From Haliovirga abyssi (GTDB lineage: Bacteria; Fusobacteriota; Fusobacteriia; Fusobacteriales; Haliovirgaceae), in NCBI RefSeq assembly GCF_030295325.1, contig NZ_AP027060.1, forward strand, positions 233,552-297,551: a stretch of 64,000 bases of DNA, given 5' to 3'. This document shows positions 10,763 to 36,493 of this stretch, piece by piece (position 1 is the first letter of the stretch; each line of letters opens with the position of its first letter). Under the pieces are notes generated by a model. It was not told the origin of the DNA and ran no database searches. It saw only the letters and a list, made by a program, of their open reading frames with translations. The translations under genes were made by a program, and so were the position numbers.

Positions 10763-11080
10763 TTATATCAACTCATTATATTTCCGAGCTAATTTTAATA
10801 AGGCACTCCCTAATTCAGAGTATATATCCCAAGAATCCACTATGTTTCTTGTATATGATGGCAAAAATAACTTTGGTGACATCTTTGTTTTCATCTTTTC
10901 AAGCTCTGCTAGTATTCTTTCCAATTCATTTTGAGAAGGAATTAACTCTGAACTATTATCTTCTCTTTTTATTTTTAATATTTCTTTATTTATCCTAATT
11001 TCTAATTCATCAATCATATTAATAACTTTCATTTTCTTTTTTTCTACGGCATTATTAAATTTTGTCTTTGTACCCACCAT
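10763..11080 (-). CDS. Putative immunity protein for Rhs tip A
   Basis: Up to 105 aa, helical and charged (MIDELEIRINKEILKIK, ELERILAELEKMKTKM). The frame overlaps the Rhs stop codon by 37 bp. An internal ATG at 11032, just after the Rhs stop, is an equally good start and would give 89 aa. The overlap with the toxin tip is the basis for the call. It is the last gene of the long operon, before the terminator at 10652-10684. No family recognised. Confidence 0.65.
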   Translation of the reverse strand: MVGTKTKFNNAVEKKKMKVINMIDELEIRINKEILKIKREDNSSELIPSQNELERILAELEKMKTKMSPKLFLPSYTRNIVDSWDIYSELGSALLKLARKYNELI

Positions 11081-14000
11081 TGCATTTCACCTCCTGTATA
11101 TTGCAACCCATAATTTAATTGAGATGCTGCTTTGCCTGTTATTATTTGAGTTCCTGCTTGCACTTGCCATTGTTGTAATCCTGTCATAAGATTCCAATTT
11201 GGAGGAAGAGCTAAACCATATCTATTTGTTAAATTTGTAAAAGTAGGAAATAAATATGATCCTGATTTATAAGCTTTTTCCCCAAAATCATGAAACCTCA
11301 ATCCATAAGTAGCTGTATCTGCAGTTTTCATATTAATTGTTCCTTCTTTAAAAGATTGCAATATATTAATTCTTTGTTCTCTGCCAACTCCAATATTTTG
11401 TAGATATTTTGAAGCTTGTTTTACCCCTGCGTAGGAATCCTTAGTTATTAATTCACCACTTTCTGCTGCTACTGTAGGTAATAAAAACATTTGAGCAGCA
11501 TATCCCCCAAGTAAAGTTAATGCCGTTTTATCATAAGTATCTCTTGTCCACATCGAAGATAAAAACAACGGCATTAAATACAAGCTATTATCTGTATCAA
11601 TATATTTATTTGCCCAATATTCACTAGCATATTCTCCTGCTTTTGTCCCCAAAAATCCATATTCTGCACTATTTCCGGTCGGATCCACATAACTAATCGG
11701 ATTCCCTTTTGAGTAGCCATATAAGTTCAAACTAAGCGGCTCCTTAATATCTCCATTATATGTATCACGACTTATAAATCGTCTTATCTCCGGGCTATAA
11801 TATCTAGCTCTTAGATACTGCAATCCACTCTCTTCATCTGTATATTCTCCTGAATATCTAAATGGATTTGTTATGTCTTCTTCTATTTTAAGCTCTTTCC
11901 CATACTTATCATATTCATAATTATTTTTTATTGTTCCTGACGAATCAAATAGTTTTAGTGTATCTCCATGACTATTTTTCAAATAACTATAGTTTTTCCC
12001 ATTTATTTCTCTTCCTATTATTCCTCTTAATCCAAATAAATTTCTTTTTATTTCTCCATTTGATATGTCATTTATAATTTTATTATTTGAATAATAAAAT
12101 TTTGTTTCTAATCCATTTACTGCTTTTGACTTCCTTTGATTTGTTGGATAATATTTATATATTCCCGTTATTCCTCTTTTTATATCATTATATTTTGTAA
12201 GCCTATTTTCTATATTATATTCATAAGCTTCTGTTTTTTCTCCATTTATTGACTTATTTCGCAGATTTCCATTATCGTCATATTCAAATGAATTTTTTTC
12301 TTTTTTACATTCCCATATATTATTATTTGATTTTACTCCTTTCCATTTTGTTATATTTATCAACTCATCATCTTCGTTATAATTATACCACAAACCGCCT
12401 GTTTCATTCCAGTTATTATTAACTTTTACTTTATATTTTTCCATACTTATATTTCCCGAAGTTGTATATGTATAGCCCCTATCAATACTATCATTCCCAT
12501 TATTAATTTTTAAGTTTCTAATAAGTCTATTCACTCCATCATACATATATATGTTTTTTTGATTAGATATATTATTGATTTCAGTTGTTAAATTTCCTAC
12601 TTTATCATAATCATAAGTATAATCTAAACTCTTCTTTTCATTTAAAGTCCCTTGTAAAGTCATTAAATTTCCAATATCATATGTATATTCTTCAGAATAT
12701 ATAGTTTTTTTATCTTTTTTTTCTTCTAACTTTTCTAATTTATTATTCATGTAATATTGATATTCTATTTTTTCATCCGTTTCATTATTATCATATATTT
12801 TCCATAATCTATTTCTAGTATCATATATATATTTATAATATTTATTGGTTATATCAGTAACTTTTTTTATGTTTCCATTTTTATTGTACTCATACTTTAC
12901 GCTTTTTCCATCTGGATATACTAACTCTTTTAAGCTACCATCATTATAATATTTATAATTTAATGATTCTTTCTCTAATGAGTTAATAACCTCTTTTATT
13001 GAACCATCATCATAATATTTATATTCTTTTATTTTATTATCTTCTTCTATTTTATTTTTATAAACATATTGCAATCTATTATAACTATCATATGTATAAT
13101 AGAATTCTTGTAATTTCTTGTCTTTTTTATAGATTATATTCCCCAAATAATCGTACTTATAAATATTTGTTTTACCTTTTATTTCTATATTATATAAATC
13201 ACCTTCATCTATTTTCCCTTGTTCTGCTTTATTTATACCTTTCAAAACTTCTGAATTTAGTTTTCCTATTTCTTTTATTAATTCTCCTCTTTTATTATAT
13301 TGCTTTACTATACTCCCCTTTGGAGTTAATATTTTGATTATATTTCCAAGTAAATCATAATAGTATTTTATATATATTTTTTCTGTTGGAATTTCTACTT
13401 TTATTAATCTTTCTAACGAATCATAATAATATATAGTTTTAACATCTCTAGCATTTATTATCGTTTTTATTTTTCTAAATCCAGCTATCCAATCTATTTT
13501 TTCTTTATTTGATATATGTTCATTTGAAGATAATTTTTTTATTATATCTTCTGCATTATTTACTTTTGTTAATAATTCTTCAAATGATATTTTCTTCCCA
13601 CTAAATGTACATTGAAATTGCAAATTATCATTATTATCGTAAACATTCCAATTATGATTTCCTTCTTCATCTATATTCACTTTTACCCTGTTAAACTTAT
13701 ATTGGCTATCCAAATATTTTATTCTTTTTTCTGGAATAATTCCATTATTTGTTTTGGGATATATTATTTTTGTATTCCTATTTAGTTCGTCGTATTTATA
13801 GATAATTTTGTTATCTTCTGCATCTGACTCTGAATTTAATCTTCCTATTTCATCATATTCATATCCTTTTATTTTATTCCATTCGTTATTCTTATATTCC
13901 AAAATTTCTTTTATATTATCATATATATCATATTTTAACTTTACTTTATATATTCCATCATTAGCATATTCTGCTTTCTTTTCCATTATTATTTCTCTTT

Positions 14001-17000
14001 GTGTATCATCATATTTTATCTCTTTGTCAAAAATCTTATCACCTGAATTATAAATATATCTTAATCTATCTAATTCATCATATTGTTTATATATCTTACT
14101 ATTATCTCCAGAATTATTTGATAATTGTTCTAATAGAATTAAATTTCCTGTTTCTTTTCTATAGTTAGAAACACTCTTTATTATATTCTCTTTGCCTGTA
14201 TAATCTTTTTCATAGATATTTTTTGTTATACTATACCCATTATATGTTTGATTCCAAGGAGTTACTATATTTACATTATCATTATATTCATATCTTTCTT
14301 TATAATTACTTTCTTTTCCAGCAACATATCTATCAAAATCCCATTTGCTAATCTCTTTTAATCTTCCATCGTCATAATAATTATATTTTTCATAAATATT
14401 ATTCGGATTATTATCTGCATCAAAATTATGTATGATTTTTAGTCCTATGTTCTTTTTGTTTTCTGTAAGCTCAAAGTCCATCTGTTTATTAATTACTAAA
14501 TCTTTACTATCATCTGCTTTTTCTATATCATATGATCCACTATAGCCTACTTTTATAGATTTAGGCAGTTCCCAGAAATGATTCCCTTCTGATGTACTGT
14601 AATATTCAAATTTATCAACTCTATCATAATAATCCAATTCATCCATATGAACAGATTTTTTTTTATTTCCATTATCATAATATCTATAATATTGGATTTC
14701 TGAATTGTTTTGTTTGCCTAAATAAAAATTTGATTTTGTTACTTTTGTTGGATATACATCTTTGAAATAATCTTCATACCATATACACTGTATTTTTTCA
14801 ATATCACTTCCTTGTCCATTTTTATCTTTATCTATCCATTTTATTTCATTTGTTTTTAGTCTTTTCCAATTATATAAATATGTAGTTTTTAAATTCGTTT
14901 TTGAATTTGTTTCTGTTGTTGTAAACCAATATTTTTCTTTATCATAATTATCATAGTTATAATTCTCCTCTTTCATTCCAGCCAATAAATATCCGCCATT
15001 TTTAAATTGAGAATCATAATTGTAAATTAATTTAAATTCAAATTCATTTTTTTTGAATTTGTCATCACTCTTATATATTATTTTATTTTTTAATCTATAA
15101 TATATTTTTCGAGCATGAAGCTCAAAATGATCTTCAACATAAAAGAATGGTGGTGGACATAATGAATAAATAACATCATGTCGTCTCCCATATTTTTCTT
15201 CAAACTGCTCATATTCTAATTTTATTATTTTACCACTATTTTCTGTTATTTTATTTAAATATGAAAAAGAAATCTCTTTTTTATCATCTGGTACATTTGT
15301 TTCATTTCCTTTTAGTAATCCTAACAATTTTTGGTATTGTTCTCTCTTAATCTCATCTTTTATTGAATACTTAAGGTAATCAAAACTTGTTTTTCTATTT
15401 TTTTGATCTACTCTTGTTAAAATTTCCCCCTTTCTTTTAATATATTCTATATTTTTATTTGTTGGCAATTCAATAGTTACTTTATTGTTTTTATTGGTAA
15501 TTATAATTTTATTTTTATAAGTATCTTCTATTATTATTTTATTAGTTTTGTAAATAAAAATAATTTTATCCTTAAACCTATTCTCTATAAAATTTAATTT
15601 CCCTGTATTATCAAAAACATAAGTTATTCCTGTTATCATATTCATTAAATAATATTTATTTCCTTCTTTTTTTAATTTTATATTATTTAATTTATGATCT
15701 TTTAATTTATTATTATCAATTTCAATTCTACTACCATTAGATAACATTAATATATCTTTTTTATTTTTATTATTTCCAAATTTTGAATATCCTAATATAA
15801 TTTCTGGAAAACATATTCTCCAACCAGAACCTATCTTAAATTTTCCTTCTATATCATAAAAACTTGTACTATATATTGTTTCAATTTTTAAATTCAAATT
15901 ATTTTTTCCAGGTAAATTTAAATCAGTTATTTTATAGTTAAAGTCTCCTGTAACTAAATTAATATCTGCTTTATTTTTGTACTTAGTTAGCGTGTTAGCG
16001 ACAGAATTTAAAAAATTATCATCATTACTTACATTTTCTGCACTTCCTCTTGTAATTATTTCTTTTTTTATATTTCCATTTTCAATTATGTATTTTCCAC
16101 TTTCTGTTATCTCATAATTTTTATCATAATCTCCTTTATTGTTTGTAAATTTTAAAATTAAAGGTTCTTCAAATTTTATTTCTATTTTATTATATATTTT
16201 TCCATATAATATACTTTTTTCTAATTTTATTGGTGGAACTTTATCACTATCTACTTTCATATATACGTTTTCCCAATCACTTAAATAATAAATTGTTGCT
16301 TTTTTACTTAATTCTACTGTGGGACTACTTTCTAACGCCACATTTTTTGACATTTCAATTCTTTTGACTATGTTTTCTTTTTTTATTTCCGAACTTTTTA
16401 CAAGATATTTCCCTACCTCATTCCCCATATCCAACAACAAATTCTTTTCTTTTAAATTATCTATAATGTTATCATTATCTATATCATATTTATATCTATT
16501 CTCAAAAATATAATTATTATCTTGACCTATTCCTAAATAATTTAAACTTCCATTATACTCATTGTTATATGGATATTTTATTATTGGTTTTTGTTTACTA
16601 AGCAACCCTATTATATCCAATTTATAAGTTTTTTGTAATTTGCCATTAATATAAACTTCAAATTCTAATGGATTTTTTCCATTAATTTCCTTAATATTTC
16701 CATTGTTTTCTGTTATTTCTCTATAAGTAACTCCTAAAATTTTCACTATATACATCTCATTTTTTGCCTTATATGCCTTAAATTCTTTTTCATAACTTGG
16801 TCCTGTACTATTTATAAATTTTATGCTTATATCTTTTTTTGCATCTGTCAAAAATCCTAATTCCAAATTATATCCTATTTTTTTATGTATATAATTTTTA
16901 TCTTCACCTGGTTCTACCTTATAATCAATAACTTCTTTCCAGCCATCCACTTTTTCTAATTTAACATTATCATTTACAGAAAATTCTTCTGCATATGTTT

Positions 17001-18216
17001 TTTGTGTGAATGTTAATAAATTAAATATTTCAGAAAAAATCTTTGATATATTTTTAATATTAATTGTCTTTATATAATACTCTCCAGGCATTAATAAAAT
17101 ATTTCTACTTCTATAGTTCCCATTGACTTCATCTTTTTTTATTGAAATTTCTTTTAATAAATTATAATCTTTATCTAATAATTGAGCTTTATTAAATATT
17201 TCTTTTCCTAAGTTAATATAATATAGATCTTTATTTAATATTTTCACTTTAAATATATTATCTGATATTTTTTCTAATAATATTGTATTTTTAAATTTAT
17301 TTATCTCTTCTAATTGAATTGATTTTTTTACTTTACTTTTTATAGAATAAAAATTTTCATATTTATTTTTACTTATATCAATCTTTTCTATATTAAAATT
17401 TTTATCAAGTTTATATACTCCTGGTAAGTCTATATAATAGTTAGAGCTTTTATTATTTTCTATATTATTTGTATTTTCAAAATAAAAATTTATACTTGTA
17501 GTATATGGGAAAATAGTATACTTATATCCTTGTTTTAATTTACTATCTACTATTTTTTTCTTTTCCCAGCCTCTATTATCACTATTATAATTTATTACAT
17601 TATATTTCTCTGTTTGAAAATATAGAGCTATAAATTTTTCTTTACTTGAAACTACCTTTGTTACAAATTCAAGATTTTTATTTTCAAGTTTATAAACTCC
17701 TGCACTATTTATTTTATAACTTGCAGTTTCATAACCTATTTTAAATTCCATATAGTTTGCTGGAATTGTTATCTCTTTATATCCTTCATATATTAAACTC
17801 GAATGCATTAAAATCAATTTTTCTATCCATTTTTTCCCATCTAAACTATATTTTATATATACATTATTTTTATTACTTTTATAATGTATTTGTATTAATG
17901 AACTTGTCATTTGAGAAACAATCCCATTTTCTATTATATATTCTCCTGAATTATTTATATAATATTCTTCGTTCTTACCTACTCCATCAGTTATTTTAAA
18001 TTGAGATTTATTTCCTTTTACAATTGTATAATCATACCCACCATATAAATAACTCTTTATCATCTCTTTCTTAGGCAGCCATCCATTTGTTCCTCTTTCT
18101 TGAATAAATAATTGTTTCTGATTCGCTTTATAATGTATCTTTATACAGTTATCTGTTTTTCCAAAAGATATTAAACTTAAAACTAAAATCCCTAATACTA
18201 TTATTATTTTTTTCAT
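11044..18216 (-). CDS. Full-length Sec-exported Rhs/YD-repeat toxin
   Basis: 2,390 aa. Residues 1-19 are a Sec signal peptide (MKKIIIVLGILVLSLISFG). Modules at about 24-98, 103-180, 190-275 and 645-740 share IHYKxN...YIKYSxDGxxW and resemble CBM25-type carbohydrate-binding domains. The Rhs shell starts near 750 (LVTGDFNYKITDLNLPG), followed by many YD-type repeats. The core closes near 2172 with RARYYSPEIRRFISRDTY and NLYGYSKGNPISYVDPTGN. The tip (about 2185-2390, tip A) contains GVGREQRINILQSF, LALPPNWNLMTGLQQWQV and GGEMQWWV, a pattern seen in other polymorphic toxin tips, activity unknown to me. Rhs shells encapsulate the tip until delivery. A signal peptide and upstream T2SS genes suggest release through GspD rather than a type VI system. 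Confidence 0.9.
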   Translation of the reverse strand: MKKIIIVLGILVLSLISFGKTDNCIKIHYKANQKQLFIQERGTNGWLPKKEMIKSYLYGGYDYTIVKGNKSQFKITDGVGKNEEYYINNSGEYIIENGIVSQMTSSLIQIHYKSNKNNVYIKYSLDGKKWIEKLILMHSSLIYEGYKEITIPANYMEFKIGYETASYKINSAGVYKLENKNLEFVTKVVSSKEKFIALYFQTEKYNVINYNSDNRGWEKKKIVDSKLKQGYKYTIFPYTTSINFYFENTNNIENNKSSNYYIDLPGVYKLDKNFNIEKIDISKNKYENFYSIKSKVKKSIQLEEINKFKNTILLEKISDNIFKVKILNKDLYYINLGKEIFNKAQLLDKDYNLLKEISIKKDEVNGNYRSRNILLMPGEYYIKTINIKNISKIFSEIFNLLTFTQKTYAEEFSVNDNVKLEKVDGWKEVIDYKVEPGEDKNYIHKKIGYNLELGFLTDAKKDISIKFINSTGPSYEKEFKAYKAKNEMYIVKILGVTYREITENNGNIKEINGKNPLEFEVYINGKLQKTYKLDIIGLLSKQKPIIKYPYNNEYNGSLNYLGIGQDNNYIFENRYKYDIDNDNIIDNLKEKNLLLDMGNEVGKYLVKSSEIKKENIVKRIEMSKNVALESSPTVELSKKATIYYLSDWENVYMKVDSDKVPPIKLEKSILYGKIYNKIEIKFEEPLILKFTNNKGDYDKNYEITESGKYIIENGNIKKEIITRGSAENVSNDDNFLNSVANTLTKYKNKADINLVTGDFNYKITDLNLPGKNNLNLKIETIYSTSFYDIEGKFKIGSGWRICFPEIILGYSKFGNNKNKKDILMLSNGSRIEIDNNKLKDHKLNNIKLKKEGNKYYLMNMITGITYVFDNTGKLNFIENRFKDKIIFIYKTNKIIIEDTYKNKIIITNKNNKVTIELPTNKNIEYIKRKGEILTRVDQKNRKTSFDYLKYSIKDEIKREQYQKLLGLLKGNETNVPDDKKEISFSYLNKITENSGKIIKLEYEQFEEKYGRRHDVIYSLCPPPFFYVEDHFELHARKIYYRLKNKIIYKSDDKFKKNEFEFKLIYNYDSQFKNGGYLLAGMKEENYNYDNYDKEKYWFTTTETNSKTNLKTTYLYNWKRLKTNEIKWIDKDKNGQGSDIEKIQCIWYEDYFKDVYPTKVTKSNFYLGKQNNSEIQYYRYYDNGNKKKSVHMDELDYYDRVDKFEYYSTSEGNHFWELPKSIKVGYSGSYDIEKADDSKDLVINKQMDFELTENKKNIGLKIIHNFDADNNPNNIYEKYNYYDDGRLKEISKWDFDRYVAGKESNYKERYEYNDNVNIVTPWNQTYNGYSITKNIYEKDYTGKENIIKSVSNYRKETGNLILLEQLSNNSGDNSKIYKQYDELDRLRYIYNSGDKIFDKEIKYDDTQREIIMEKKAEYANDGIYKVKLKYDIYDNIKEILEYKNNEWNKIKGYEYDEIGRLNSESDAEDNKIIYKYDELNRNTKIIYPKTNNGIIPEKRIKYLDSQYKFNRVKVNIDEEGNHNWNVYDNNDNLQFQCTFSGKKISFEELLTKVNNAEDIIKKLSSNEHISNKEKIDWIAGFRKIKTIINARDVKTIYYYDSLERLIKVEIPTEKIYIKYYYDLLGNIIKILTPKGSIVKQYNKRGELIKEIGKLNSEVLKGINKAEQGKIDEGDLYNIEIKGKTNIYKYDYLGNIIYKKDKKLQEFYYTYDSYNRLQYVYKNKIEEDNKIKEYKYYDDGSIKEVINSLEKESLNYKYYNDGSLKELVYPDGKSVKYEYNKNGNIKKVTDITNKYYKYIYDTRNRLWKIYDNNETDEKIEYQYYMNNKLEKLEEKKDKKTIYSEEYTYDIGNLMTLQGTLNEKKSLDYTYDYDKVGNLTTEINNISNQKNIYMYDGVNRLIRNLKINNGNDSIDRGYTYTTSGNISMEKYKVKVNNNWNETGGLWYNYNEDDELINITKWKGVKSNNNIWECKKEKNSFEYDDNGNLRNKSINGEKTEAYEYNIENRLTKYNDIKRGITGIYKYYPTNQRKSKAVNGLETKFYYSNNKIINDISNGEIKRNLFGLRGIIGREINGKNYSYLKNSHGDTLKLFDSSGTIKNNYEYDKYGKELKIEEDITNPFRYSGEYTDEESGLQYLRARYYSPEIRRFISRDTYNGDIKEPLSLNLYGYSKGNPISYVDPTGNSAEYGFLGTKAGEYASEYWANKYIDTDNSLYLMPLFLSSMWTRDTYDKTALTLLGGYAAQMFLLPTVAAESGELITKDSYAGVKQASKYLQNIGVGREQRINILQSFKEGTINMKTADTATYGLRFHDFGEKAYKSGSYLFPTFTNLTNRYGLALPPNWNLMTGLQQWQVQAGTQIITGKAASQLNYGLQYTGGEMQWWVQRQNLIMP
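11700..13633. repeat. Duplicated Rhs core segment, copy in full-length gene
   Basis: Partner of 8640-10573. It covers the last third of the Rhs core up to the tip junction. Confidence 0.93.
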
Positions 18217-18231
18217 TTTAACATTTCCCTC

Positions 18232-19632
18232 CTATTTTCTTACTATTATTTTATACCATCTATTTTCACTTACATCATTATCTATATAATAATTATCAGT
18301 TGTACTTCCTAATATTTTATAATCTATTCCATTTGTACTCATATATATATAATATCCAGTACTTTCATCTATATTTTCCCATTCTAATTTTATATTTGAT
18401 TTTTCAAAATTAACATTATCCATTTGACTTATCCTGAAATTTAACTTCTTAGACAATGTCTTTACACTTTTTTCAATATATTCACTACTAATATTTCCAT
18501 ATACTGCTCTAATTCTAACGTTATAGTTTGTATTTAACTTTAGATTATCTATTAGAATATTCTCTTTTTTCACTGTTTTTTTATTTTTATATTCTGTACT
18601 ATTTGATTCTCTCCATTCTATTTCATACTTTGTACCCTCTGGATATATACTTTTTTTCCATGATAAGTATATTGAATTTCCATCTACTCCATCATCTTTA
18701 AAGTTAATTGGCTTTTCAAGTTCAAGATTAAAAGTAACTTCTTTTTCTTTTAATAATTCTTTATTTTTATTATACGCTTGTACTTTTACTTTATATTCTT
18801 TGTTGTCTCTAATTTCACTCATATAAAATCCATATCCTGTAACGCCTTTATTTGTAGTTTGCTTTATTATTTTTCCATTATTTTCTATGGTAATTTTATA
18901 CTCATCTGCTTCATTTAATTTATTCCATTCAATCTCTATCGTTGGATATGTTTTATCTTTTACTACTAACGAATTTAATCCATTCAATGCTGTCGCCTCT
19001 ATAGTTATTTCATTACTTTTTACTCCATCAATCATCACATATAATTTATGTGTACCTGGATATACTGTCCTATAATATAATTGAGGTAGTTCTATATTTA
19101 TTGTTTTCCCTGAAGGTAAAATATCATATATCTTAACCCTACTTTTTATCTCTTCATAAGGTATCGTCTTATCTACATATACAGGAACTCCTGGAGCAAC
19201 TTGTTCTTTTTCCCAACTATATACATCGAAAGATATATATTCTACTTCTAATCCATCTGCTTTTACCTTCCCATCTGCCTTATCAGACAGCTTAATATGA
19301 TGTATTGGAGCTATTTGATTTCCTGTAATTACTTTTAAATATGCTCCTTTTTCTACTTTAAACTCTCCTTTAATTCTCACTGTTTCTCCTGCTTTTAACA
19401 AAACTTCTCCATTTGGTTTGCTTATTTTTCCTGAATTTATGGTAATTGTCTCATCAGCTTTATAATATTTTCTTGTATCGTCCAATAGATTTACTAATAA
19501 TAACTTTCTTTTTAATAAAGTCAACCTTTCCGATAGAGGTAATGGAGTTAATATTTCAAAATTAACTTGCGAAAATACCGTCCATGACATACTGATAAAA
19601 ATAATTAACCTAAAATATTTTCCTTTATTCAT
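18232..19632 (-). CDS. Secreted fibronectin type III-repeat protein
   Basis: 466 aa with an N-terminal signal peptide (LIIFISMSWTVFSQ, followed by mature VNFEIL). Residues 60-130 look like a beta-rich adhesin segment (TITINSGKISKPNGEVLLKAGETVRIKG), as in proteins that anchor Rhs shells. Three fibronectin III-like units follow: about 215-300 (IEIEWNKLNEADEYKITIEN), 305-390 (IYLSWKKSIYPEGTKYEIEWR) and 395-466 (IKLEWENIDESTGYYIYMS). It lies 15 bp upstream of the Rhs gene in the operon, ribosome-binding site aaggaga. Probably a surface or assembly partner of the Rhs protein; exact role not known. Confidence 0.8.
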   Translation of the reverse strand: MNKGKYFRLIIFISMSWTVFSQVNFEILTPLPLSERLTLLKRKLLLVNLLDDTRKYYKADETITINSGKISKPNGEVLLKAGETVRIKGEFKVEKGAYLKVITGNQIAPIHHIKLSDKADGKVKADGLEVEYISFDVYSWEKEQVAPGVPVYVDKTIPYEEIKSRVKIYDILPSGKTINIELPQLYYRTVYPGTHKLYVMIDGVKSNEITIEATALNGLNSLVVKDKTYPTIEIEWNKLNEADEYKITIENNGKIIKQTTNKGVTGYGFYMSEIRDNKEYKVKVQAYNKNKELLKEKEVTFNLELEKPINFKDDGVDGNSIYLSWKKSIYPEGTKYEIEWRESNSTEYKNKKTVKKENILIDNLKLNTNYNVRIRAVYGNISSEYIEKSVKTLSKKLNFRISQMDNVNFEKSNIKLEWENIDESTGYYIYMSTNGIDYKILGSTTDNYYIDNDVSENRWYKIIVRK

Positions 19633-19660
19633 TTTTATATCTCCTTATTTATATATTTTT

Positions 19661-24996: not shown

Positions 24997-25008
24997 TCTT
25001 ACCTCCAT

Positions 25009-28054: not shown

Positions 28055-28094
28055 CTCTAACCTCTCCTTAATTATTTTTTCTCTATTACTCACT

Positions 28095-29855
28095 TTATTG
28101 TGCTTTTTTAATAAGCTCACTCATATCTCTTGCCATTTTTATAGTTTCTCCATCTTCTACTATTCTTGGTGTAATATAAATTAATAATTCTGTTTGGTTG
28201 CTATCTCTACTTTTTGTTTTAAATAACTCGCCTAATAAAGGGATATCTTTTAATATTGGAATTCCTGACTCTTTTTCTGTTATTACATTTTGCTCTAACC
28301 CGCCAATTACTATGGTTTCTCCATCTTTTACTCTTACTGTTGTTTTGGCTTCTCTTTTACTTACTGTTGGTGGTCCTTCTGCTGGTGCTGCTCCTCCTAT
28401 ATTGCTTATTGTTGGATTTAACTTTAAACTTATATCTCCTGTTGAATTTATCCATGGAGTTACATCTAGTGTTACTCCAGCATTTACACTTTTATAATCT
28501 ATCTTTTCTTTGCCTTCGTTATCTAAAGTTACAACTTTATAATACTGAACTGTTCCTACATTTATTACTGCCTTTTCTCCGTTTATTGTTGTTATACTTG
28601 GCTTGGCTTTAATTTTTGCTAATCCTTGTTGTATTAACAATTGTAATTTTGTATAAAATACATCGTTTAATTTTGTTGCATTTTCATATGTAAACTCTCC
28701 TGAATTTGTATCAAATACATTTAATTTTTTTCCCCTTGTTGTTACCCCCTCTAATTGTAATCCTAGTTTCTGTGTATTATTTTTATTTTTTGATATTTCT
28801 ACTATTAATGCTTCAATTTTTATTTGTGGTACTTTTTCATCTAATTTTTTTATATATGATTTCAATTTTGACATATCTTTATCCGTCCCTGAAAACAGAA
28901 GAGCATTCTGATTTGAAATAACTTTTATATTTGCAACTGAAAAATCATTTGGAAGTAAAGATGGCACTTTCTCAGCCTGAATAAATTTCAATTTTATTAA
29001 TTCTGTTGAATTAAATATATCATTCCCTACTCCCATGCTATTTTTTCTCGTAATTATATAAATCTTATTTTCTATTTTATATGTATAATTAGCTCCCTCT
29101 AGTAAAATGTTTATAACTTCATTTAAATTAGCATTTTCTAATTTTAATGATATCGACTCAACTCCCGAAGTTAATATCATCATATTTAAACCTGCTATTG
29201 TTGATATTTTTTTTAATATTTTTATTACATTTTCATTTTCTGCATCTATAGACACTTTCCCCTTATTATATGATATTTTTAGTTTACTTGGTATTCTTGC
29301 TCTGCTTATTCCAGATGTAATTTTATAAATCCCTCTATCTTTCATAATAGAATATCCATTAGTTTCAAATAATACAACTAATCCTGAATCTATATCCACA
29401 TCTCTTACTCTGCCTGATATATTTCCTTTTACATTATTATCTACAACAATATTCAATCCTGCTTTTTCTGTAAGTTCTTTTGCTACCTCTCGTATATCAA
29501 CATCATATATGCTATAACTTAGTTTATTCCCGTTAATACTTATTTCTGCCATATTTTTTGGAATAACTTTCCTTTTTACATAAAAAGTATTATCTGTTAT
29601 TTTTATAATCTCATAATTATATACTTTTTCTAATATACTTAATGTATTCTTTAGAGTAACATTTTCAAGATTAAGTGATATCTTACCATGTATTTCAGGA
29701 CTTGATATTATATTCATTCCACTTTGTTTTGTAAGTAATACAAATACATCTTTTGCTTCTGCTCCTAAAACGCTTATATTTATCAGTTTTTCTTGTGCAA
29801 ATACAATGTTTGTATACATAATAATCATAAAAATAATAAACATTAACTTTTTCAT
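28095..29855 (-). CDS. gspD: Type II secretion outer-membrane secretin GspD (PilQ-like)
   Basis: 586 aa with signal peptide (MKKLMFIIFMIIMYTNIVFA). Three STN/N-type domains occupy about 20-265 (VLGAEAKDVFVLLTKQSGMNI; YDVDIREVAKELTEKAGLNIV; ENVIKILKKISTIAGLNMM), then an N1-like domain and the secretin channel (about 380-575), with VKDGETIVIGGL and GIPILKDIPLLGELF. It would form the outer-membrane channel for folded substrates. The start overlaps the gspM stop by 4 bp. At 586 aa it is shorter than classical GspD (about 650), closer to PilQ-type channels. Confidence 0.9.
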   Translation of the reverse strand: MKKLMFIIFMIIMYTNIVFAQEKLINISVLGAEAKDVFVLLTKQSGMNIISSPEIHGKISLNLENVTLKNTLSILEKVYNYEIIKITDNTFYVKRKVIPKNMAEISINGNKLSYSIYDVDIREVAKELTEKAGLNIVVDNNVKGNISGRVRDVDIDSGLVVLFETNGYSIMKDRGIYKITSGISRARIPSKLKISYNKGKVSIDAENENVIKILKKISTIAGLNMMILTSGVESISLKLENANLNEVINILLEGANYTYKIENKIYIITRKNSMGVGNDIFNSTELIKLKFIQAEKVPSLLPNDFSVANIKVISNQNALLFSGTDKDMSKLKSYIKKLDEKVPQIKIEALIVEISKNKNNTQKLGLQLEGVTTRGKKLNVFDTNSGEFTYENATKLNDVFYTKLQLLIQQGLAKIKAKPSITTINGEKAVINVGTVQYYKVVTLDNEGKEKIDYKSVNAGVTLDVTPWINSTGDISLKLNPTISNIGGAAPAEGPPTVSKREAKTTVRVKDGETIVIGGLEQNVITEKESGIPILKDIPLLGELFKTKSRDSNQTELLIYITPRIVEDGETIKMARDMSELIKKAQ

Positions 29856-30397
29856 CTTTTGCCTCCTTTAATATATGCTATTAAGATTATGTTTGTCATT
29901 AAAATATCTGTTTTTTTCTTTATCTCAAGAGCTTCAATGTACATTTTTTTTTCATATGAAAATGTTTCTAAAAATGTTATTGTATTTTCATATTCTCCTT
30001 CAAGCAAAATATGAAATGAAATTTTAGTTATACCTACCTTTTTAATTTCTTCAATATTAATACTTTTATTTTTTATTTTTAAATTATCTTTTATACTTTC
30101 TTTATTTATTTTATCCATAATATTAAATTGAACATTTTTAATATTATCATTAAATATTTTTTTTGAAATATCTACCTCGTCATTTTCAATATTTTCCTTT
30201 TGCTTTTTATAGCTTATATAATTTCCTATATCATTTCTAACTAATTTAGATTCAGCTAAAGTTTTTTCTATTTTCATTCCTAATCTCCTGTTTTCATCAA
30301 TCAATGGCAATAAATACCACTTTACATATGAAACAGAAATTATTATAATTATTGTTATTAACATCATTATCTTTTCTCTTTTTTGCAATTTACTCAA
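29852..30397 (-). CDS. gspM: GspM/PilO-like inner-membrane assembly protein
   Basis: 181 aa with one N-terminal membrane helix (IMMLITIIIIISVSYVKWYLLPLI), a coiled-coil stretch and a ferredoxin-like C-terminal domain (ISFHILLEGEYENTITFLETF), the PilO/GspM layout. It pairs with the GspL/PilN-like protein encoded just upstream, overlapping it by 8 bp. Role: inner-membrane platform of the T2SS. Identified by architecture and position. Confidence 0.75.
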   Translation of the reverse strand: MSKLQKREKIMMLITIIIIISVSYVKWYLLPLIDENRRLGMKIEKTLAESKLVRNDIGNYISYKKQKENIENDEVDISKKIFNDNIKNVQFNIMDKINKESIKDNLKIKNKSINIEEIKKVGITKISFHILLEGEYENTITFLETFSYEKKMYIEALEIKKKTDILMTNIILIAYIKGGKR

Positions 30398-31484
30398 CTA
30401 ATTCACCTTCTATTCTAAATCTCTCTTTTTGCTTTTCTGTTATTATACTTCCTCTAAATTTTAATTTTAAAAATTTTTTCGACTGTTCAAGTTTTTTTAA
30501 AAATTCAGAAGCATTTTTGCTCTTTCCTGATATTCCCTGTAGCTTGTTCTTTTGAAATGTAATTCTGTCTATTTCAGTTGTAGAATCAGAAACATCCGCT
30601 ATCACCGCTAACCATTTTATATAACTTTTACTCTCAAATACTGATACTAACTCTTTTAATTTTTCTACTTCTTTTGTTTTACTTTTAAGATATTTTTTCA
30701 TTTCCATAATATTGCCTTCAGGTTTTTTTAGTTTTTCATTTATGCTTTTAAGTTTTAACAAACTGTTTTTATAGTTTTGATTCATATATATGAGTTTTGT
30801 ATTATACATAATGAATATTATAGTTACCATAAAAATAGATGCATATTTAAAAATAATTCTACTTTTATTTATATCTTTTACTGATATTAAAAAATTTAAT
30901 TTATTCAATTTTTTTCCTGCTTTTTTTCTTAATTTATCAATTTTTTCATAACTATCAAGATTATACACATCTCCATCTGATTCAAATAACTCCCTTTTAT
31001 CTTCTGTTTTGTATAATTCTATATCTTTTTCTTTATATACATATTTATTTTCTAATCTATAAATAAGTCTCTTTTCATTTGTAAATAAAATTTCTGTTAA
31101 TGGATATATCCCTCCTATATTTACTCTTTTATCAAATTTCATTTTAAACTTTCTTTTTTCTACTATAAATATCTTTAAATTCAAATTATTATCTTTTTTA
31201 GATATAGTGTATTTATAATTTACATCTTCTCTTGGAAATAGTAGATTATTTAAAACATTCATCTCTATCATATTATTTATTCTACTTTTTAATTTCTTTA
31301 ATATGGTTATTTGTTTATATATCACATAATCAGGTGTTATAAACCACTGTATATTGACTTTTTTATAATTTTCACTTAGATACCTATTTAATTCTTCAAT
31401 TCCTTCAAATGTTTTTTTCTCATTATTACTAAAAAAACAAATATGAATATCTCTAAAAGATATCACGTAACAATTTTCAATCAT
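30390..31484 (-). CDS. gspL: GspL/PilMN-like inner-membrane platform protein
   Basis: 364 aa from ATG 31484 (gaggaga upstream). A cytoplasmic N-terminal region (about 1-210) is followed by one membrane helix (IFKYASIFMVTIIFIMYNT), a coiled coil (about 240-290) and a periplasmic PilN-like domain (YIKWLAVIADVSDSTTEIDRI). This is the GspL arrangement, although the cytoplasmic part is too diverged to show an actin-like fold. Links the ATPase GspE to the pseudopilus. Confidence 0.75.
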   Translation of the reverse strand: MIENCYVISFRDIHICFFSNNEKKTFEGIEELNRYLSENYKKVNIQWFITPDYVIYKQITILKKLKSRINNMIEMNVLNNLLFPREDVNYKYTISKKDNNLNLKIFIVEKRKFKMKFDKRVNIGGIYPLTEILFTNEKRLIYRLENKYVYKEKDIELYKTEDKRELFESDGDVYNLDSYEKIDKLRKKAGKKLNKLNFLISVKDINKSRIIFKYASIFMVTIIFIMYNTKLIYMNQNYKNSLLKLKSINEKLKKPEGNIMEMKKYLKSKTKEVEKLKELVSVFESKSYIKWLAVIADVSDSTTEIDRITFQKNKLQGISGKSKNASEFLKKLEQSKKFLKLKFRGSIITEKQKERFRIEGELVE

Positions 31485-31510
31485 ACCGTTTCTCCTCAAA
31501 TTTTATCATT

Positions 31511-32017
31511 TTATAAATCTCTCATTAAATAGATTGATATATTTTTTGTTATTATTTTATTGGATTTTTTAAAAAATCTTATAGTAATTACTTTTGGCAT
31601 TTTCTTCTCTTTAAGGAAGTCCCATTCACTCTTCCATTCACCATTTAAACCTATATAGATAAATTCCACTCTTGCGTACTCTTCTTCCTCTGTTAAATCA
31701 AATTCCTTTTTATTCTCTTTAATAATTAGTTTATAACCATTAAAAAATATCTTAATATGCTTTTCTTCATTTTTTAATATCCTATCAAATTCCATCTCAT
31801 TATATTTACCTTTAAAATCCATAGTTGAATTAATATTTCGCAAGTTATATTTTAATATCTCTACTATTTTATCTTCTGTCCCTATTAATTTTTCTGTTTT
31901 CATATTTAAACTTTTATTTATTATAGATAGAAAAGCAATTGCAGAATAGATTACAAGACTGGATATAGAAATAGCTATAAGTAATTCTATTAATGTAAAT
32001 CCTTTCTCAATTTTCAT
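31511..32017 (-). CDS. gspJ: Minor pseudopilin GspJ-like
   Basis: 168 aa from ATG 32017 (gaggaagc upstream). Type III signal KGFTLIELLIAISISS with Gly at -1 and Glu at +5, then a hydrophobic helix and a C-terminal beta domain (WKSEWDFLKEKKMPKVITIRF typical of GspJ). It needs a prepilin peptidase, which is not encoded in this window. Start overlaps the gspI stop by 11 bp. Confidence 0.8.
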   Translation of the reverse strand: MKIEKGFTLIELLIAISISSLVIYSAIAFLSIINKSLNMKTEKLIGTEDKIVEILKYNLRNINSTMDFKGKYNEMEFDRILKNEEKHIKIFFNGYKLIIKENKKEFDLTEEEEYARVEFIYIGLNGEWKSEWDFLKEKKMPKVITIRFFKKSNKIITKNISIYLMRDL

Positions 32018-32378
32018 TTTTCTTTGCTTCCTCTTGGTTAAAAATTGCAGATAATATATCATGTTTTTCAATTCCTTTTATTTTATAATTTGCTCTAAAT
32101 GTTCTTTTAATCAGATTATTTTCTATTCTTTCTTCTGTTATATTCCAATTAATTTCTATTCTATTAATATCATCTACACCATTTAAACCATAACTTATTT
32201 TATCATTTATCTCTTCTAGCTTGTTCGCCCCTAATTTGTGTACTTTAGATTTCACTATATAATTTATATTGTTATTAGATAACTTTATCGTAAGTGAAAT
32301 AAATGACGGAACTGACATTGCTAAAATTGCTGCTGCAACAAGAACTTCTATAAGGGTAAATCCTCTATTATTCGACAT
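32007..32378 (-). CDS. gspI: Minor pseudopilin GspI-like
   Basis: 123 aa. Prepilin signal MSNNRGFTLIEVLVAAAILA with conserved Glu+5, then a short globular part with INWNITEERIENNLIKRTF, the W-containing strand usual in GspI. Overlaps both neighbours by about 11 bp. Expected to form the pseudopilus tip with GspJ and GspK. Confidence 0.82.
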   Translation of the reverse strand: MSNNRGFTLIEVLVAAAILAMSVPSFISLTIKLSNNNINYIVKSKVHKLGANKLEEINDKISYGLNGVDDINRIEINWNITEERIENNLIKRTFRANYKIKGIEKHDILSAIFNQEEAKKNEN

Positions 32379-32796
32379 TTACTTCACCTGTTTCTTCCTG
32401 AATCTCTATATTTAGTGTTCCATATGAAGTTTTTATTTCTACATTTTCACCTAACACTTTTCCATATTTATTAAATATTATTTTATTACTTCCATTATCT
32501 GATTCGTTGTTAAAATTCATATTATTTTCATCCCATTTAACTGATATAATCTTTTTTTCAGATATAAGTTCTCTTATATCTTTTATTTCTATATCTTTTT
32601 TTTCAATAATTGCTTTATCTTTAAAGTATTGAAATTTCTCTTCTACCCCTTTTAATATAAGTTTTCTATTCATTGATTTATCATATCTTTGCATATTATT
32701 TATTGTAATTGTCAATATCAACGAAAGAATAACTACTACTATTATCATTTCTATAAAAGTAAAACCTTTTTCTTTTTTACCAGTTTGTAATATCAT
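32368..32796 (-). CDS. gspH: Minor pseudopilin GspH-like
   Basis: 142 aa. Prepilin signal KEKGFTFIEMIIVVVILSLILT, 30-residue hydrophobic helix, then a beta-rich domain. Its position between gspG and gspI and its length fit GspH. Overlaps gspG by 20 bp. Confidence 0.8.
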   Translation of the reverse strand: MILQTGKKEKGFTFIEMIIVVVILSLILTITINNMQRYDKSMNRKLILKGVEEKFQYFKDKAIIEKKDIEIKDIRELISEKKIISVKWDENNMNFNNESDNGSNKIIFNKYGKVLGENVEIKTSYGTLNIEIQEETGEVNVE

Positions 32797-33205
32797 CGCT
32801 ATCTTTTCCGCCTTCTATTCCATCTTCTCCATTAGACCAAATATCATATTTTTCAGGATTGTTATATCCGGGACTCCTATATTCAAATTTATTTCCCCAA
32901 GCATCTTTTGGTATCTCTTTCTTTTCAAGGTAAGGACCATTCCAATTTCCAGCTATAGGATATGTTATTGGCTTTTCTGTTAATGCCCTTAATCCTTGTT
33001 CTGTAGTAGGATAATTCTTATTATCTAACCAATAATTATCAAGTGCCATTTGTATTATTTTAATCTGATTCTTCGTTGTAACTTTTTCAGCTTGTGATAC
33101 TCGATTAAAAAGATTTGGCCCTATAGTTGCTGCTAAAAATCCTATTATCACAACTACTATTATAATTTCTATCAATGTAAATCCATTTTCTTTTTTCTTA
33201 TTCAT
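32777..33205 (-). CDS. gspG: Major pseudopilin GspG
   Basis: 142 aa. Signal NGFTLIEIIIVVVIIGFLAA, then the GspG hallmark core: ALDNYWLDNKNYPTTEQGLRALTEKP, GPYLEKKEIPKDAWGNKFEYRSPG and the calcium-loop region YDIWSNGEDGIEGGKDSDDI. This is what makes the cluster a T2SS rather than a type IV pilus. ATG preceded by gaggagt. Confidence 0.93.
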   Translation of the reverse strand: MNKKKENGFTLIEIIIVVVIIGFLAATIGPNLFNRVSQAEKVTTKNQIKIIQMALDNYWLDNKNYPTTEQGLRALTEKPITYPIAGNWNGPYLEKKEIPKDAWGNKFEYRSPGYNNPEKYDIWSNGEDGIEGGKDSDDITNW

Positions 33206-33252
33206 TAAAAACTCCTCTCACAAAATATAATAAACTTCTTTTTTAAAGACAC

Positions 33253-33357: not shown

Positions 33358-34551
33358 TTATAATTTTTCTATACCTGCTAAATTAATTATTGGTATCAGC
33401 ATTGCATAAATTAATACTCCAAATATAATTCCTATAATTATTATTACCAGTGGTTCAAATACTTTTGAAAATATTGCTATATTACTCTTTAATTCATCAT
33501 TCAATGTATCTGATAAATCTGCAAAAGACAGACCTAAATCCCCACTATTTTCTCCTACTTTTAAAAGTTGAAAAAATAGATTATCATATAAAAAATTCCC
33601 ATTTAATGATTCTGATAATTTATTACCATTTACAACTTTTGTTATTATCTTTTCAACTTCATTTTTTAAATATTGATTTTTTGTAAGTGTTTTTGATATT
33701 TCTAGAGATTTTATAAGCGAAACTTTACTATTTAATAATCCACTCATCATTGATGAAAAGTTATACAGAAAAAATTTTCTATAACTTTTATTAACAAAAG
33801 GTATTATTAATAGATATTTATATACTTTTCGCTTTAGAAATTCTGAATTAAAAAAAATATAACTTAAAACAATAAATATCATGCTAACCGCAAAAATACT
33901 TATTATATTCTTTTCAAATAAGTTCACTAAATCAATAATCACACTTGTAATTTTAGGAAGTTTTTGCCCATAATTATCATATATCTGCTTAAATCTTGGA
34001 AGTACATACCCAAACATTACTGCCACTGATATTATTCCAACAAAAATTAAAATAACCGGATAAGTCAATGTTGATATTATGAATTTCCTGAAATTCATTT
34101 TTTCATAAATTGTTTTTTTTAGTTCTTCAAAAACAGCCTTTATAAATCCTCCTTCTTCTCCAGCTTTTATCATACTTATATATCTTTGATCAAAATATCC
34201 AGGATATGAAGATAATGCTATTGAAAAGCTTTCACCTTTTCTTACTTTTTCATATATAGCATCATAAACTTTTCTGGCATATTTATTCTTTGTGAGATTT
34301 GTTGCTGTTTCTAATGATTCTCCCAGATTCATACCTGATTTTAATAGTGTATTCATATTTTTTGTAAATATATATATATCTTTTAGACTTGCTCTTTTAG
34401 AAAAGATTGTTGCTATTTCCTCTTTTATTTCATATATTGTTATCTCTTTTCTATTTAAATCATTTAAAGCTTGCTGCTCATTTGTAGATTCCACTGTTCC
34501 TTCTACTTTTTCTCCTTTTTTATTATATCCTTTATACTTGTATAAAGACAT
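33358..34551 (-). CDS. gspF: Inner-membrane platform protein GspF
   Basis: 397 aa, full length. Two T2SSF domains (about 65-190 and 265-390), each with the conserved pattern (LLKSGMNLGESLETA; SLIKSLEISKTLTKNQYL), and three membrane helices (about 170-190, 222-240, 365-390). MSLYKYKGYNKKGEKVEGTVE is the typical N-terminus. Recruits GspE and the pseudopilins. Good ribosome-binding site (taggaggta), 8 bp after gspE. Confidence 0.93.
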   Translation of the reverse strand: MSLYKYKGYNKKGEKVEGTVESTNEQQALNDLNRKEITIYEIKEEIATIFSKRASLKDIYIFTKNMNTLLKSGMNLGESLETATNLTKNKYARKVYDAIYEKVRKGESFSIALSSYPGYFDQRYISMIKAGEEGGFIKAVFEELKKTIYEKMNFRKFIISTLTYPVILIFVGIISVAVMFGYVLPRFKQIYDNYGQKLPKITSVIIDLVNLFEKNIISIFAVSMIFIVLSYIFFNSEFLKRKVYKYLLIIPFVNKSYRKFFLYNFSSMMSGLLNSKVSLIKSLEISKTLTKNQYLKNEVEKIITKVVNGNKLSESLNGNFLYDNLFFQLLKVGENSGDLGLSFADLSDTLNDELKSNIAIFSKVFEPLVIIIIGIIFGVLIYAMLIPIINLAGIEKL

Positions 34552-34559
34552 TTTACCTC

Positions 34560-35966
34560 CTAACCACTTGTAACTCTTATCACTTCTTCTATTGTTGTTA
34601 TGCCATCTTCTATTTTCTTTTCTCCATCTTCAAAAATTGTTCTCATACCATTTTTCTTTGATTCTTTTATAATATCCTGTAATTCTCTTTTTTCTGAAAT
34701 CATTCTTTTTATATCATCTGTTATATTCATTACTTCAAATAGTCCTAATCTTCCTACATATCCAATATCATTACATGTTATACATCTTTTATGGCTCTCA
34801 TCTTTTAGTTTCTTCTCTTCTTTACAATCTGGACATATTTTTCTAACAAGTCTTTGTGCAATAATTCCTTTTAAAGATGCTGCAAGCAAGTAATCTTCTA
34901 CTCCAAGATCTTTTAATCTCATTATCGAACTCGGTGCATCATTTGTATGTAATGTTGCCAATACAAGATGACCAGTTAAAGCTGCCTGAACTGCTATCTT
35001 CGCTGTTTCAGTATCTCTTATTTCTCCTATCATTATAATATCTGGATCCTGTCTCAATATCGATCGCAAGCCATTTGCAAATGTAAAATTTATTTCTGGC
35101 TTTACTTGCATCTGGTTCACTCCACTTATCTGATATTCTATTGGATCTTCTATTGTTATTATTTTTTTTTCTGAAGCATTTAGATAGTTTAAAGTTGCAT
35201 AAAGTGTCGTTGTTTTCCCACTTCCTGTGGGTCCCGTGACTAGTATAATTCCCGTTGTATTCTTTAATATCTCATAATATTTTTTTAAATTATAGGTATC
35301 AAATCCTATATTTTCAAGCTTTAATAAACTTTTTTTCTTATCAAGTATTCTCAATGTTATATTTTCACCATTTATTATTGGTGCTATGGCTACTCTTATG
35401 TCCACTTCTCTTGAAAAAATTTTTATCCTTATTCTTCCATCCTGCGGGATTCTTCTTTCTGCTATATCAAGTGATGCCATTATTTTTATTCTTGTTACTA
35501 ATGCTGGTGCTATATACAATGGTAAAATGCCTATATTTATCAGTACTCCATCCACTCTATATCTTACCACAACTCCTTGTTCAAAAGGTTCTATATGAAT
35601 ATCGCTTGAGTCCCTTTTTACTGCATTTGCTATAATCATATTTACTAGATTAATTATTGGAGCTTCATTTGCCATCTCTTCTATATCTTCTACATTTTTT
35701 ATATTCTCATTTTCTAAAAAACTTTTAAATCCTGTTATATCTACTTCTCCAAGTATATCTGATTTCCATTCTTCTTTTTCATAATCCAATTTAATAAATT
35801 CTTCATTTTCAAGTTTTTCTATTTTCACTTTTTTTCCTAAAAACACCTCTATTTCATGAATAACTTGTGCATTATGATTAAGCTTCGAAAAAAAAATTAT
35901 ACTATTTTTATCTTTTTCCTTTATTATTAAATTGTATTTTTTTATAATTTTTTCTATATTCCTCAT
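34560..35966 (-). CDS. gspE: Type II secretion ATPase GspE
   Basis: 468 aa. Walker A GPTGSGKTTTLYATL (about 243-257), Asp box, Walker B IGEIRDTETAKIA (about 313), His box, and a C-terminal zinc-binding element with four cysteines (CPDCKEE ... CITCNDIGY). The N-terminal N1E-type domain is short. Powers pseudopilus assembly from the cytoplasmic face. The start overlaps the gspC stop by 1 bp. Confidence 0.95.
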   Translation of the reverse strand: MRNIEKIIKKYNLIIKEKDKNSIIFFSKLNHNAQVIHEIEVFLGKKVKIEKLENEEFIKLDYEKEEWKSDILGEVDITGFKSFLENENIKNVEDIEEMANEAPIINLVNMIIANAVKRDSSDIHIEPFEQGVVVRYRVDGVLINIGILPLYIAPALVTRIKIMASLDIAERRIPQDGRIRIKIFSREVDIRVAIAPIINGENITLRILDKKKSLLKLENIGFDTYNLKKYYEILKNTTGIILVTGPTGSGKTTTLYATLNYLNASEKKIITIEDPIEYQISGVNQMQVKPEINFTFANGLRSILRQDPDIIMIGEIRDTETAKIAVQAALTGHLVLATLHTNDAPSSIMRLKDLGVEDYLLAASLKGIIAQRLVRKICPDCKEEKKLKDESHKRCITCNDIGYVGRLGLFEVMNITDDIKRMISEKRELQDIIKESKKNGMRTIFEDGEKKIEDGITTIEEVIRVTSG

Positions 35967-36493
35967 TAATTCCCTACCCTTTTTTTAAATTTTATCGTCT
36001 TAAAAAAATTTTCATTCTTAACTATAATCGAATCTAAATTTATCTGTGACAACTTCCATTTCCCATATACAATATCCCCTTCTTTAAAAATTTTATTCTC
36101 ATCATGAATTATTATAAGTACTTTATTATTTTCCTTTTCATTTATTATTCCTACTAATTTTACGCCGTTTAACTCAGGAGCCCTTATAAAACTCTTCTCT
36201 TTTAATCCTTTTTCGTCTTTTTTTTTAGATAAACTAAATAATTTTTTACTGTGTAATTTTACAATATATTTCCCAATATCTTCCTGCTTTTTATCCATAT
36301 ATTTGTTTTTATTTTTATTCTCAATGGTTTTTTGCTTTCTTTTATCTTTTTCATACTTCATCAAAGAAATTCTGTTTTCTAATTCTTCACCTTTTATAAT
36401 ATCTATTCCACTGTTTTTTGTCTCTGACCACATATCATATGAAACATACACTCCACATAAAATTAACGCATATAATAATACCTTAAACTGCAC
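35966..36493 (-). CDS. gspC: GspC/PilP-like inner-membrane protein, first gene of the operon
   Basis: 175 aa from GTG 36493, chosen because agaggggg lies seven bases upstream; an ATG 33 bp earlier has no such site. One membrane helix (VLLYALILCGVYVSY), a Lys/Glu-rich linker, and a C-terminal homology-region domain (APELNGVKLVGIINEKENNKVLII, then FKEGDIVYGKWKLSQI) as in GspC/PilP, which contacts the secretin. No PDZ domain, so this is the short form. Confidence 0.8.
   Translation of the reverse strand: MQFKVLLYALILCGVYVSYDMWSETKNSGIDIIKGEELENRISLMKYEKDKRKQKTIENKNKNKYMDKKQEDIGKYIVKLHSKKLFSLSKKKDEKGLKEKSFIRAPELNGVKLVGIINEKENNKVLIIIHDENKIFKEGDIVYGKWKLSQINLDSIIVKNENFFKTIKFKKRVGN

What the first reader, a model, noticed from the sequence alone, without database searches (positions are those of the whole stretch)
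10763..36493. A type II secretion operon physically fused to an Rhs toxin locus
From gspC to the immunity gene, about 20 genes on one strand are separated by overlaps or gaps of mostly under 50 bp: complete core T2SS (C,E,F,G,H,I,J,L,M,D), five signal-peptide fibre-like proteins, two lipoproteins, a fibronectin III protein, and a Sec-signal Rhs toxin with immunity gene. Rhs toxins are best known as type VI cargo or as Sec-exported proteins of Gram-positives; one encoded inside a dedicated T2SS operon is, to my knowledge, not a described delivery system. I infer that the T2SS exports the Rhs protein and fibre proteins, with lipoproteins anchoring or maturing them.
Basis: partly seen in the sequence, partly recalled or inferred. 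Interest (0 to 1): 0.9.

Follow-up and report, generated by a model that had tools for sequence, protein, structure and literature searches.

The report
Secretion machine wired to toxin-fibre genes
A fusobacterium carries one long gene run that joins a type II secretion machine to five adhesive fibre proteins and a swappable-tip Rhs toxin, and the same secretion-machine/Rhs neighbourhood turns out to recur across Bacteroidota, which suggests an undescribed way of exporting Rhs toxins.

Summary
From gspC (36526) to a putative immunity gene (10763), 20 minus-strand genes follow one another with overlaps or gaps of at most 28 nt, except 152 nt between gspF and gspG. Rhs is a polymorphic toxin: two displaced tip cassettes lie downstream, one joined exactly at the core/tip border. 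Comparative evidence goes beyond the finding. The fibre module is otherwise absent from 98 Fusobacteriota genomes and matches Bacteroidota fibres head by head. The T2SS itself is a duplicate of the organism's own chromosomal T2SS, outside the Bacteroidota clade in GspE and GspF trees. In Bacteroidota, T2SS loci sampled without regard to Rhs sit beside Rhs: 13 of 14 within 15 kb (0.40 expected, P about 2e-20), and 13 of 20 further loci within 10 kb against 0 of 20 control stretches. So Rhs is linked to two T2SS lineages. Most likely the T2SS exports Sec-delivered fibres and Rhs to the surface as an adhesin-toxin set. Export was not tested, and fibre-Rhs arrays also occur in genomes without T2SS. 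I found no published description of the linkage. Best filed as a new variant of a known kind.

The parts
   Evidence: NF037980 GspK 4e-4 over residues 19-117, prepilin-like N-terminus without Glu5
35966..36526 (-). gspC
   Evidence: PF11356 T2SSC 2.6e-5 (below cut-off), position
34560..35966 (-). gspE ATPase
   Evidence: T2SSE 2.5e-135; TIGR02533 571 bits against PilB 498
33358..34551 (-). gspF platform protein
   Evidence: T2SSF 2.8e-47
32777..33205 (-). gspG major pseudopilin
   Evidence: T2SSG 6.7e-36
32368..32796 (-). gspH minor pseudopilin
   Evidence: N_methyl 1.6e-7, order
32007..32378 (-). gspI minor pseudopilin
   Evidence: N_methyl 1.6e-8, order
31511..32071 (-). gspJ minor pseudopilin
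   Evidence: N_methyl 1.1e-7, order
30390..31499 (-). gspL
   Evidence: PilN-like 5e-4, order as in chromosomal T2SS
29852..30397 (-). gspM
   Evidence: membrane-anchored, order only
28095..29855 (-). gspD secretin
   Evidence: Secretin 1.5e-48, STN x2; 51-52% identical to own chromosomal GspD
26909..28120 (-). fibre 1
   Evidence: GNVGIGT repeats, tail-fibre PHROGs 1.6e-12, common C-terminal domain
26019..26900 (-). fibre 2
   Evidence: 39% identical over full length, head included, to a Marinifilum fibre beside a T2SS
25009..26004 (-). fibre 3
   Evidence: 33% identical over full length to a Pedobacter fibre in a T2SS-fibre-Rhs locus
23584..25008 (-). fibre 4
   Evidence: common C-terminal domain
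22378..23565 (-). fibre 5
   Evidence: 29% identical to an Elizabethkingia fibre, head included
21357..22364 (-). lipoprotein of unknown family
   Evidence: LNGC lipobox by eye; no Pfam, no PDB relative
19661..21379 (-). LRR lipoprotein with Big_1-like stretch
   Evidence: LRR_4 1e-40, lipobox
18232..19632 (-). secreted fn3 protein
   Evidence: fn3 1.7e-15
11044..18216 (-). Rhs protein, 2390 aa, Sec signal, tip from about 11674 downwards
   Evidence: Rhs_assc_core 1e-21, RHS_repeat 3e-12
10763..11080 (-). putative immunity gene of the main tip
   Evidence: position only, overlaps rhs by 37 nt
7987..10620 (-). displaced Rhs C-terminal cassette: 1954 nt of core 99.1% identical, then another tip
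   Evidence: identity ends at the YVDP[ST]G border
2000..2572 (-). second displaced tip cassette (starts at RYVDPSG; pre-toxin TG domain)
   Evidence: PT-TG 6e-4; frame has only the last core residues
1745..1996 (-). partner of the second displaced tip, putative immunity
   Evidence: DUF7660 6e-28

Best explanation
The run is a dedicated T2SS whose cargo is an adhesin-toxin set. Fibres, fn3 protein and Rhs are made with Sec signals and folded in the periplasm: fibres as trimeric beta-helix shafts with variable heads, Rhs as a shell around its C-terminal toxin. They then leave through the GspD secretin. On the surface or in the medium the fibres bind target cells and bring the Rhs close, and its tip enters and poisons the target while the immunity protein protects siblings. 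Displaced tip cassettes renew the toxin. Shown: gene content, single-strand contiguity, signal peptides by sequence, tip replacement, linkage in two T2SS lineages. Inferred: co-transcription, export by this T2SS, fibre-Rhs contact, entry and toxicity.
For: Contiguity with overlapping genes. Own genome has no T6SS sheath gene and only this Rhs and its displaced cassettes. Two T2SSs: the chromosomal one lies beside a GH18-motif chitinase, a usual T2SS type of cargo, and has no Rhs on its replicon. The window's GspE and GspF group with that one outside the Bacteroidota T2SS clade, yet Bacteroidota T2SS loci recurrently hold Rhs (13/14 within 15 kb; 24/34 against 0/20 controls) and some hold fibres in the same run (Pedobacter L063, Leeuwenhoekiella L096, L115, L124). 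Most Bacteroidota Rhs and fibre proteins near T2SS have signal-peptide-like starts. Fibres resemble Bdellovibrio prey-binding MAT fibres. Tips exchanged at the core border.
Against: No export, expression or toxicity data. Fibre-Rhs arrays without T2SS exist (Elizabethkingia), so another exit route serves the same module there. A folded 2390-aa Rhs is a large T2SS cargo. Bacteroidota loci are not independent of each other by descent. No family for the main tip or its immunity. The secretin scores somewhat better as PilQ than as GspD in NCBIfam.
Confidence: 0.55

Rival explanations
1. Hitch-hiking: the fibre-Rhs module from Bacteroidota was inserted behind a general T2SS and profits from its promoter; the Rhs leaves by another route (vesicles, lysis).
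For: Module is foreign to Fusobacteriota; integrase and a second displaced tip lie nearby; T2SS-free fibre-Rhs arrays exist.
Against: Linkage recurs with a different T2SS lineage far above chance; organism keeps a second T2SS beside ordinary cargo.
Confidence: 0.2
2. The machine is a pilus-like display device: fibres and Rhs sit on the pseudopilus or secretin as a contact-dependent weapon, rather than being secreted.
For: NCBIfam ranks the secretin as PilQ above GspD; F. johnsoniae outer-membrane tubes carry a secretin with an unexplained flexible extracellular density (PMC8455137); Rhs is linked to T2SS in most sampled Bacteroidota loci.
Against: GspG has a full T2SSG domain and GspE scores as GspE; no fibre carries a prepilin start.
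Confidence: 0.15
3. The fibres and Rhs serve attachment or feeding (substrate binding) and not antagonism.
For: Bacteroidota T2SS mutants of Cytophaga hutchinsonii fail on cellulose (PMC5553014); fibres of the related Bdellovibrio family bind glycans (PMC10769870).
Against: Exchangeable tips with partner genes and displaced cassettes are the mark of polymorphic toxins.
Confidence: 0.1

Closest known systems
Type II secretion systems of Bacteroidota (Cytophaga hutchinsonii CHU_3191-3202; PMC5553014)
   Same: Core genes D, E, F, G and distant C, L, M, K; my survey finds Rhs beside most such loci
   Different: Published as a cellulose-utilisation system without mention of Rhs; the window's GspE/GspF lie outside that clade
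Rhs polymorphic toxins (Zhang et al. 2012, PMC3482391; T6SS Rhs such as Tse5, PMC10684867)
   Same: Rhs core, swapped C-terminal tips, immunity partner, displaced cassettes
   Different: Here in a T2SS gene run; the 2012 table calls signal-peptide toxins 'T2SS/Sec-dependent' but lists no signature neighbour genes; no T6SS sheath gene in this genome
Mosaic adhesive trimer fibres of Bdellovibrio (PMC10769870)
   Same: Signal peptide, GNVGIGTxxP capping repeats of a trimeric beta-helix (8ond 2.4e-8)
   Different: Different conserved C-terminal helical domain, shorter, encoded with T2SS and Rhs
Fibre-RhsA-RhsB arrays of Bacteroidota (Elizabethkingia L073, Pedobacter L063)
   Same: Same fibre heads and C-terminal domain, Sec signals on most proteins, Rhs at the 3' end
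   Different: Rhs split over two genes; T2SS beside it only in part of the genomes

Membership tests
Type II secretion system | Major pseudopilin with T2SSG domain | tested here: met
   PF08334 6.7e-36
Type II secretion system | GspE-type ATPase, GspF, secretin in one locus | tested here: met
Type II secretion system | Secretin classifies as GspD rather than PilQ | tested here: inconclusive
   NCBIfam PilQ 227.8 bits, GspD 174.7, both below cut-off; GspD N0 3e-5
Type II secretion system | GspC, L, M, K and prepilin peptidase present | tested here: inconclusive
   C and K weak, L and M by order, one peptidase A24 on chromosome
Type II secretion system | Exports folded Sec/Tat cargo | not testable with these tools
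   needs a mutant
Rhs polymorphic toxin | Rhs-associated core followed by variable tip | tested here: met
   TIGR03696 1e-21; identity of two copies ends at the core/tip border
Rhs polymorphic toxin | Displaced tip cassettes and immunity partner | tested here: met
   two displaced tips (one with PT-TG domain); partner genes by position, DUF7660 for one
Rhs polymorphic toxin | Tip is toxic | not testable with these tools
   main tip has no Pfam family
Type VI Rhs effector | T6SS genes in genome | tested here: not met
   no VipB (PF05943) in own genome; E. coli control positive
Mosaic adhesive trimer fibres | Beta-helix capping repeats | tested here: met
   profile match to 8ond, 8ol4
Mosaic adhesive trimer fibres | Conserved 130-aa N-terminal domain after the signal peptide | not tested
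   feature from PMC10769870; not compared

The most novel reading that the evidence does not exclude
T2SSs of Bacteroidota and of this fusobacterium are, as a rule, dedicated exporters or display devices of Rhs toxins, in part together with trimeric adhesive fibres: a widespread antibacterial delivery system that has been overlooked because these T2SSs were studied for polymer degradation. The unexplained extracellular density on F. johnsoniae tube-tip secretins could be its fibre or Rhs part.
Probability: 0.35. Interest if true: 0.92.

Novelty: new variant of a known kind. Interest (0 to 1): 0.78.

Why it matters
How signal-peptide Rhs proteins of diderm bacteria without T6SS cross the outer membrane is an open question. 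A recurrent T2SS-Rhs neighbourhood in two T2SS lineages gives a concrete, testable exit route and assigns a new role to the poorly understood T2SS of Bacteroidota. The prediction can be tested directly with gspD deletions in tractable Pedobacter or Flavobacterium laboratory strains.

Tried and rejected
Vertical inheritance in Fusobacteriota: rejected; the fibre domain occurs only in this genome of 98 and the Rhs core in 3 of 98. Import of the whole T2SS-fibre-Rhs block from Bacteroidota: rejected; the T2SS pairs with the organism's own chromosomal copy in three trees. T6SS cargo: rejected. Phage tail or plasmid element as the source of the fibres: no match in 50,697 phage records, 7 plasmids only, mostly of Bacteroidota hosts. 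Structure of the unknown lipoprotein: useless model, pLDDT 35. Fibre model weak (pLDDT 58) except the C-terminal helices; its top fold hit, the Bdellovibrio fibre 8ond, is not significant (E 0.27). Resemblance between the window fn3 protein and Pedobacter RhsB: not significant. A phylum-wide search with the full Rhs failed on the machine and was replaced by the TIGR03696 family. Papers: no open paper found that links T2SS gene clusters with Rhs; subscription papers and preprints were not searchable. Sequence-consensus promoters are uninformative in the T2SS half (as many as in shuffles).
Full report
What is there. The window is the last 64 kb of a 297.6-kb second replicon (contig C2) of a 2.73-Mb two-contig Fusobacteriota genome, the only member of its family in the collection. 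On the minus strand 20 genes run from gspC to a small gene overlapping the 3' end of rhs. Every junction is an overlap or a gap of at most 28 nt, except 152 nt between gspF and gspG. No minus-strand terminator-like site was found between 36.5 and 18 kb; the only one further down, before the end of rhs, lies within the rhs reading frame. This is strong indirect evidence for one transcript, not proof.

The secretion machine. GspE, F, G and D have clear families, and H, I and J carry prepilin starts. C is weak; L and M are placed by order, which equals that of a second T2SS on the chromosome. One prepilin peptidase on the chromosome can serve both systems. The secretin alone would score a little better as PilQ, so the T2SS label rests mainly on GspG, GspE and gene order. 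The chromosomal T2SS lies beside a protein with the GH18 chitinase motif DGVDIDWEYP, and no Rhs occurs on that replicon.

The cargo candidates. Five fibres have variable heads, GNVGIGT-type repeats and a near-invariant C-terminal domain of about 65 residues, modelled as two short helices and one long helix. Their profile matches solved Bdellovibrio mosaic adhesive trimer fibres through the beta-helix capping repeat (PMC10769870). All five, the fn3 protein and Rhs have signal-peptide-like starts, and two proteins have lipoboxes. Rhs has one full copy in the genome. Downstream lies a displaced copy of its core, 1954 nt at 99.1% identity, which ends exactly at the core/tip border and continues with another tip; a third tip retains only RYVDPSG of the core, has a pre-toxin TG domain and is followed by a DUF7660 gene. 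This is the usual tip-replacement anatomy of polymorphic toxins.

Where it came from. In 98 Fusobacteriota genomes the fibre domain occurs only here and the Rhs core in three. A scan of 84,980 species genomes returned 77 fibre loci, nearly all Bacteroidota. Fibre 2 matches a Marinifilum fibre over its whole length including the head (39%), fibre 3 a Pedobacter fibre (33%), fibre 5 an Elizabethkingia fibre (29%). So the fibre set shares several head types with Bacteroidota. In contrast, GspD, E and F of the window pair with the organism's own chromosomal T2SS at full support; GspE and GspF lie outside the well-supported Bacteroidota T2SS clade, and GspD falls as its sister with moderate support. 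The most economical reading is that the block was assembled here from a duplicated native T2SS and a foreign fibre module.

The linkage in Bacteroidota. Some fibre loci from the scan sit in T2SS runs: Pedobacter westerhofensis D-L-M-fn3 lipoprotein-C-MORN-K-I-J-F, fibres, RhsA, RhsB on one strand; Leeuwenhoekiella with 13 fibres behind gspF and then RhsA; Marinifilum with fibres before the T2SS genes. Because that scan was chosen through fibres, I sampled T2SS without regard to Rhs: a GspF profile hit 15 of 395 Bacteroidota genomes. (The profile's four seeds came from fibre-bearing loci, so distant T2SS may be under-sampled.) Leaving out the seed genome, 13 of 14 have an Rhs core within 15 kb of gspF, against 0.40 expected from the Rhs number and genome size (P about 2e-20). 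One genome has its only Rhs 5 kb from gspF. A second sample in another order gave 20 new loci: 13 hold Rhs within 10 kb, 24 of 34 in all, against 0 of 20 control stretches (Fisher P 1e-7). Orientation and side vary, and in several loci Rhs follows a gsp gene directly (L112, L115). Fibres are near T2SS in 5 of the 34. Relatedness inflates these P values; the deep-branching L122 and L123 genomes have Rhs only at 12-14 kb.

Limits. Fibre-RhsA-RhsB arrays also occur in genomes without the T2SS (Elizabethkingia), so T2SS implies Rhs far more than Rhs implies T2SS. Export, contact and toxicity are inferred. The two window lipoproteins have no counterpart that I could identify.

Literature. Zhang et al. 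2012 label signal-peptide toxins 'T2SS/Sec-dependent' without any neighbourhood marker (PMC3482391). The Bacteroidota T2SS is described for cellulose use (PMC5553014). F. johnsoniae shows secretins with a flexible extracellular density at tube tips, candidate GspD (PMC8455137). None of the passages read mentions Rhs beside T2SS. Preprints and most subscription papers could not be searched, so the novelty claim is provisional.

Verdict. A real and unusual T2SS-fibre-Rhs gene run, whose T2SS-Rhs linkage recurs in a second T2SS lineage. Most likely a T2SS-exported adhesin-toxin set.

Noticed in passing
window 1-1706 and 6045-7752: 99% identical direct duplication carrying a toxin-antitoxin-like pair (ORFs 689-958 and 948-1226; copies at 6735-7272), flanking an integrase (3499-4428) and a replication-initiator-like gene (4512-5858).
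   Followed up: partly
L007 185-3439 (chromosome C1): Protein with a GH18 chitinase motif directly beside the organism's other T2SS, a likely ordinary T2SS cargo.
   Followed up: no
G000 C1:169842-170765: Secretin-like gene with an in-frame TAA, about 6 kb from the only prepilin peptidase: possibly a decayed or interrupted pilus secretin.
   Followed up: no
G044 C2:1453762-1454577: Secretin match inside an open frame of 2422 codons in another fusobacterium, 46 kb from two Rhs cores.
   Followed up: no
plasmid CP012864.1 of Persicobacter sp. JZB09: 18 separate places encoding the fibre domain on one 110-kb plasmid: possibly a large fibre repertoire.
   Followed up: no
L073, L103 (Elizabethkingia): Four fibres followed by RhsA and RhsB; no T2SS GspF found in the L073 genome (the L103 genome was not searched): the exit route of the same module there is unknown.
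   Followed up: partly
window 40135-44303: Two tandem related lipoproteins of 775 and 580 aa that look like esterase-type alpha/beta hydrolases.
   Followed up: no
L063 3189-4136 and most Bacteroidota T2SS loci: An fn3/Ig-like lipoprotein is a nearly constant member of the Bacteroidota T2SS run and is absent from textbook T2SS; its role is unknown.
   Followed up: no
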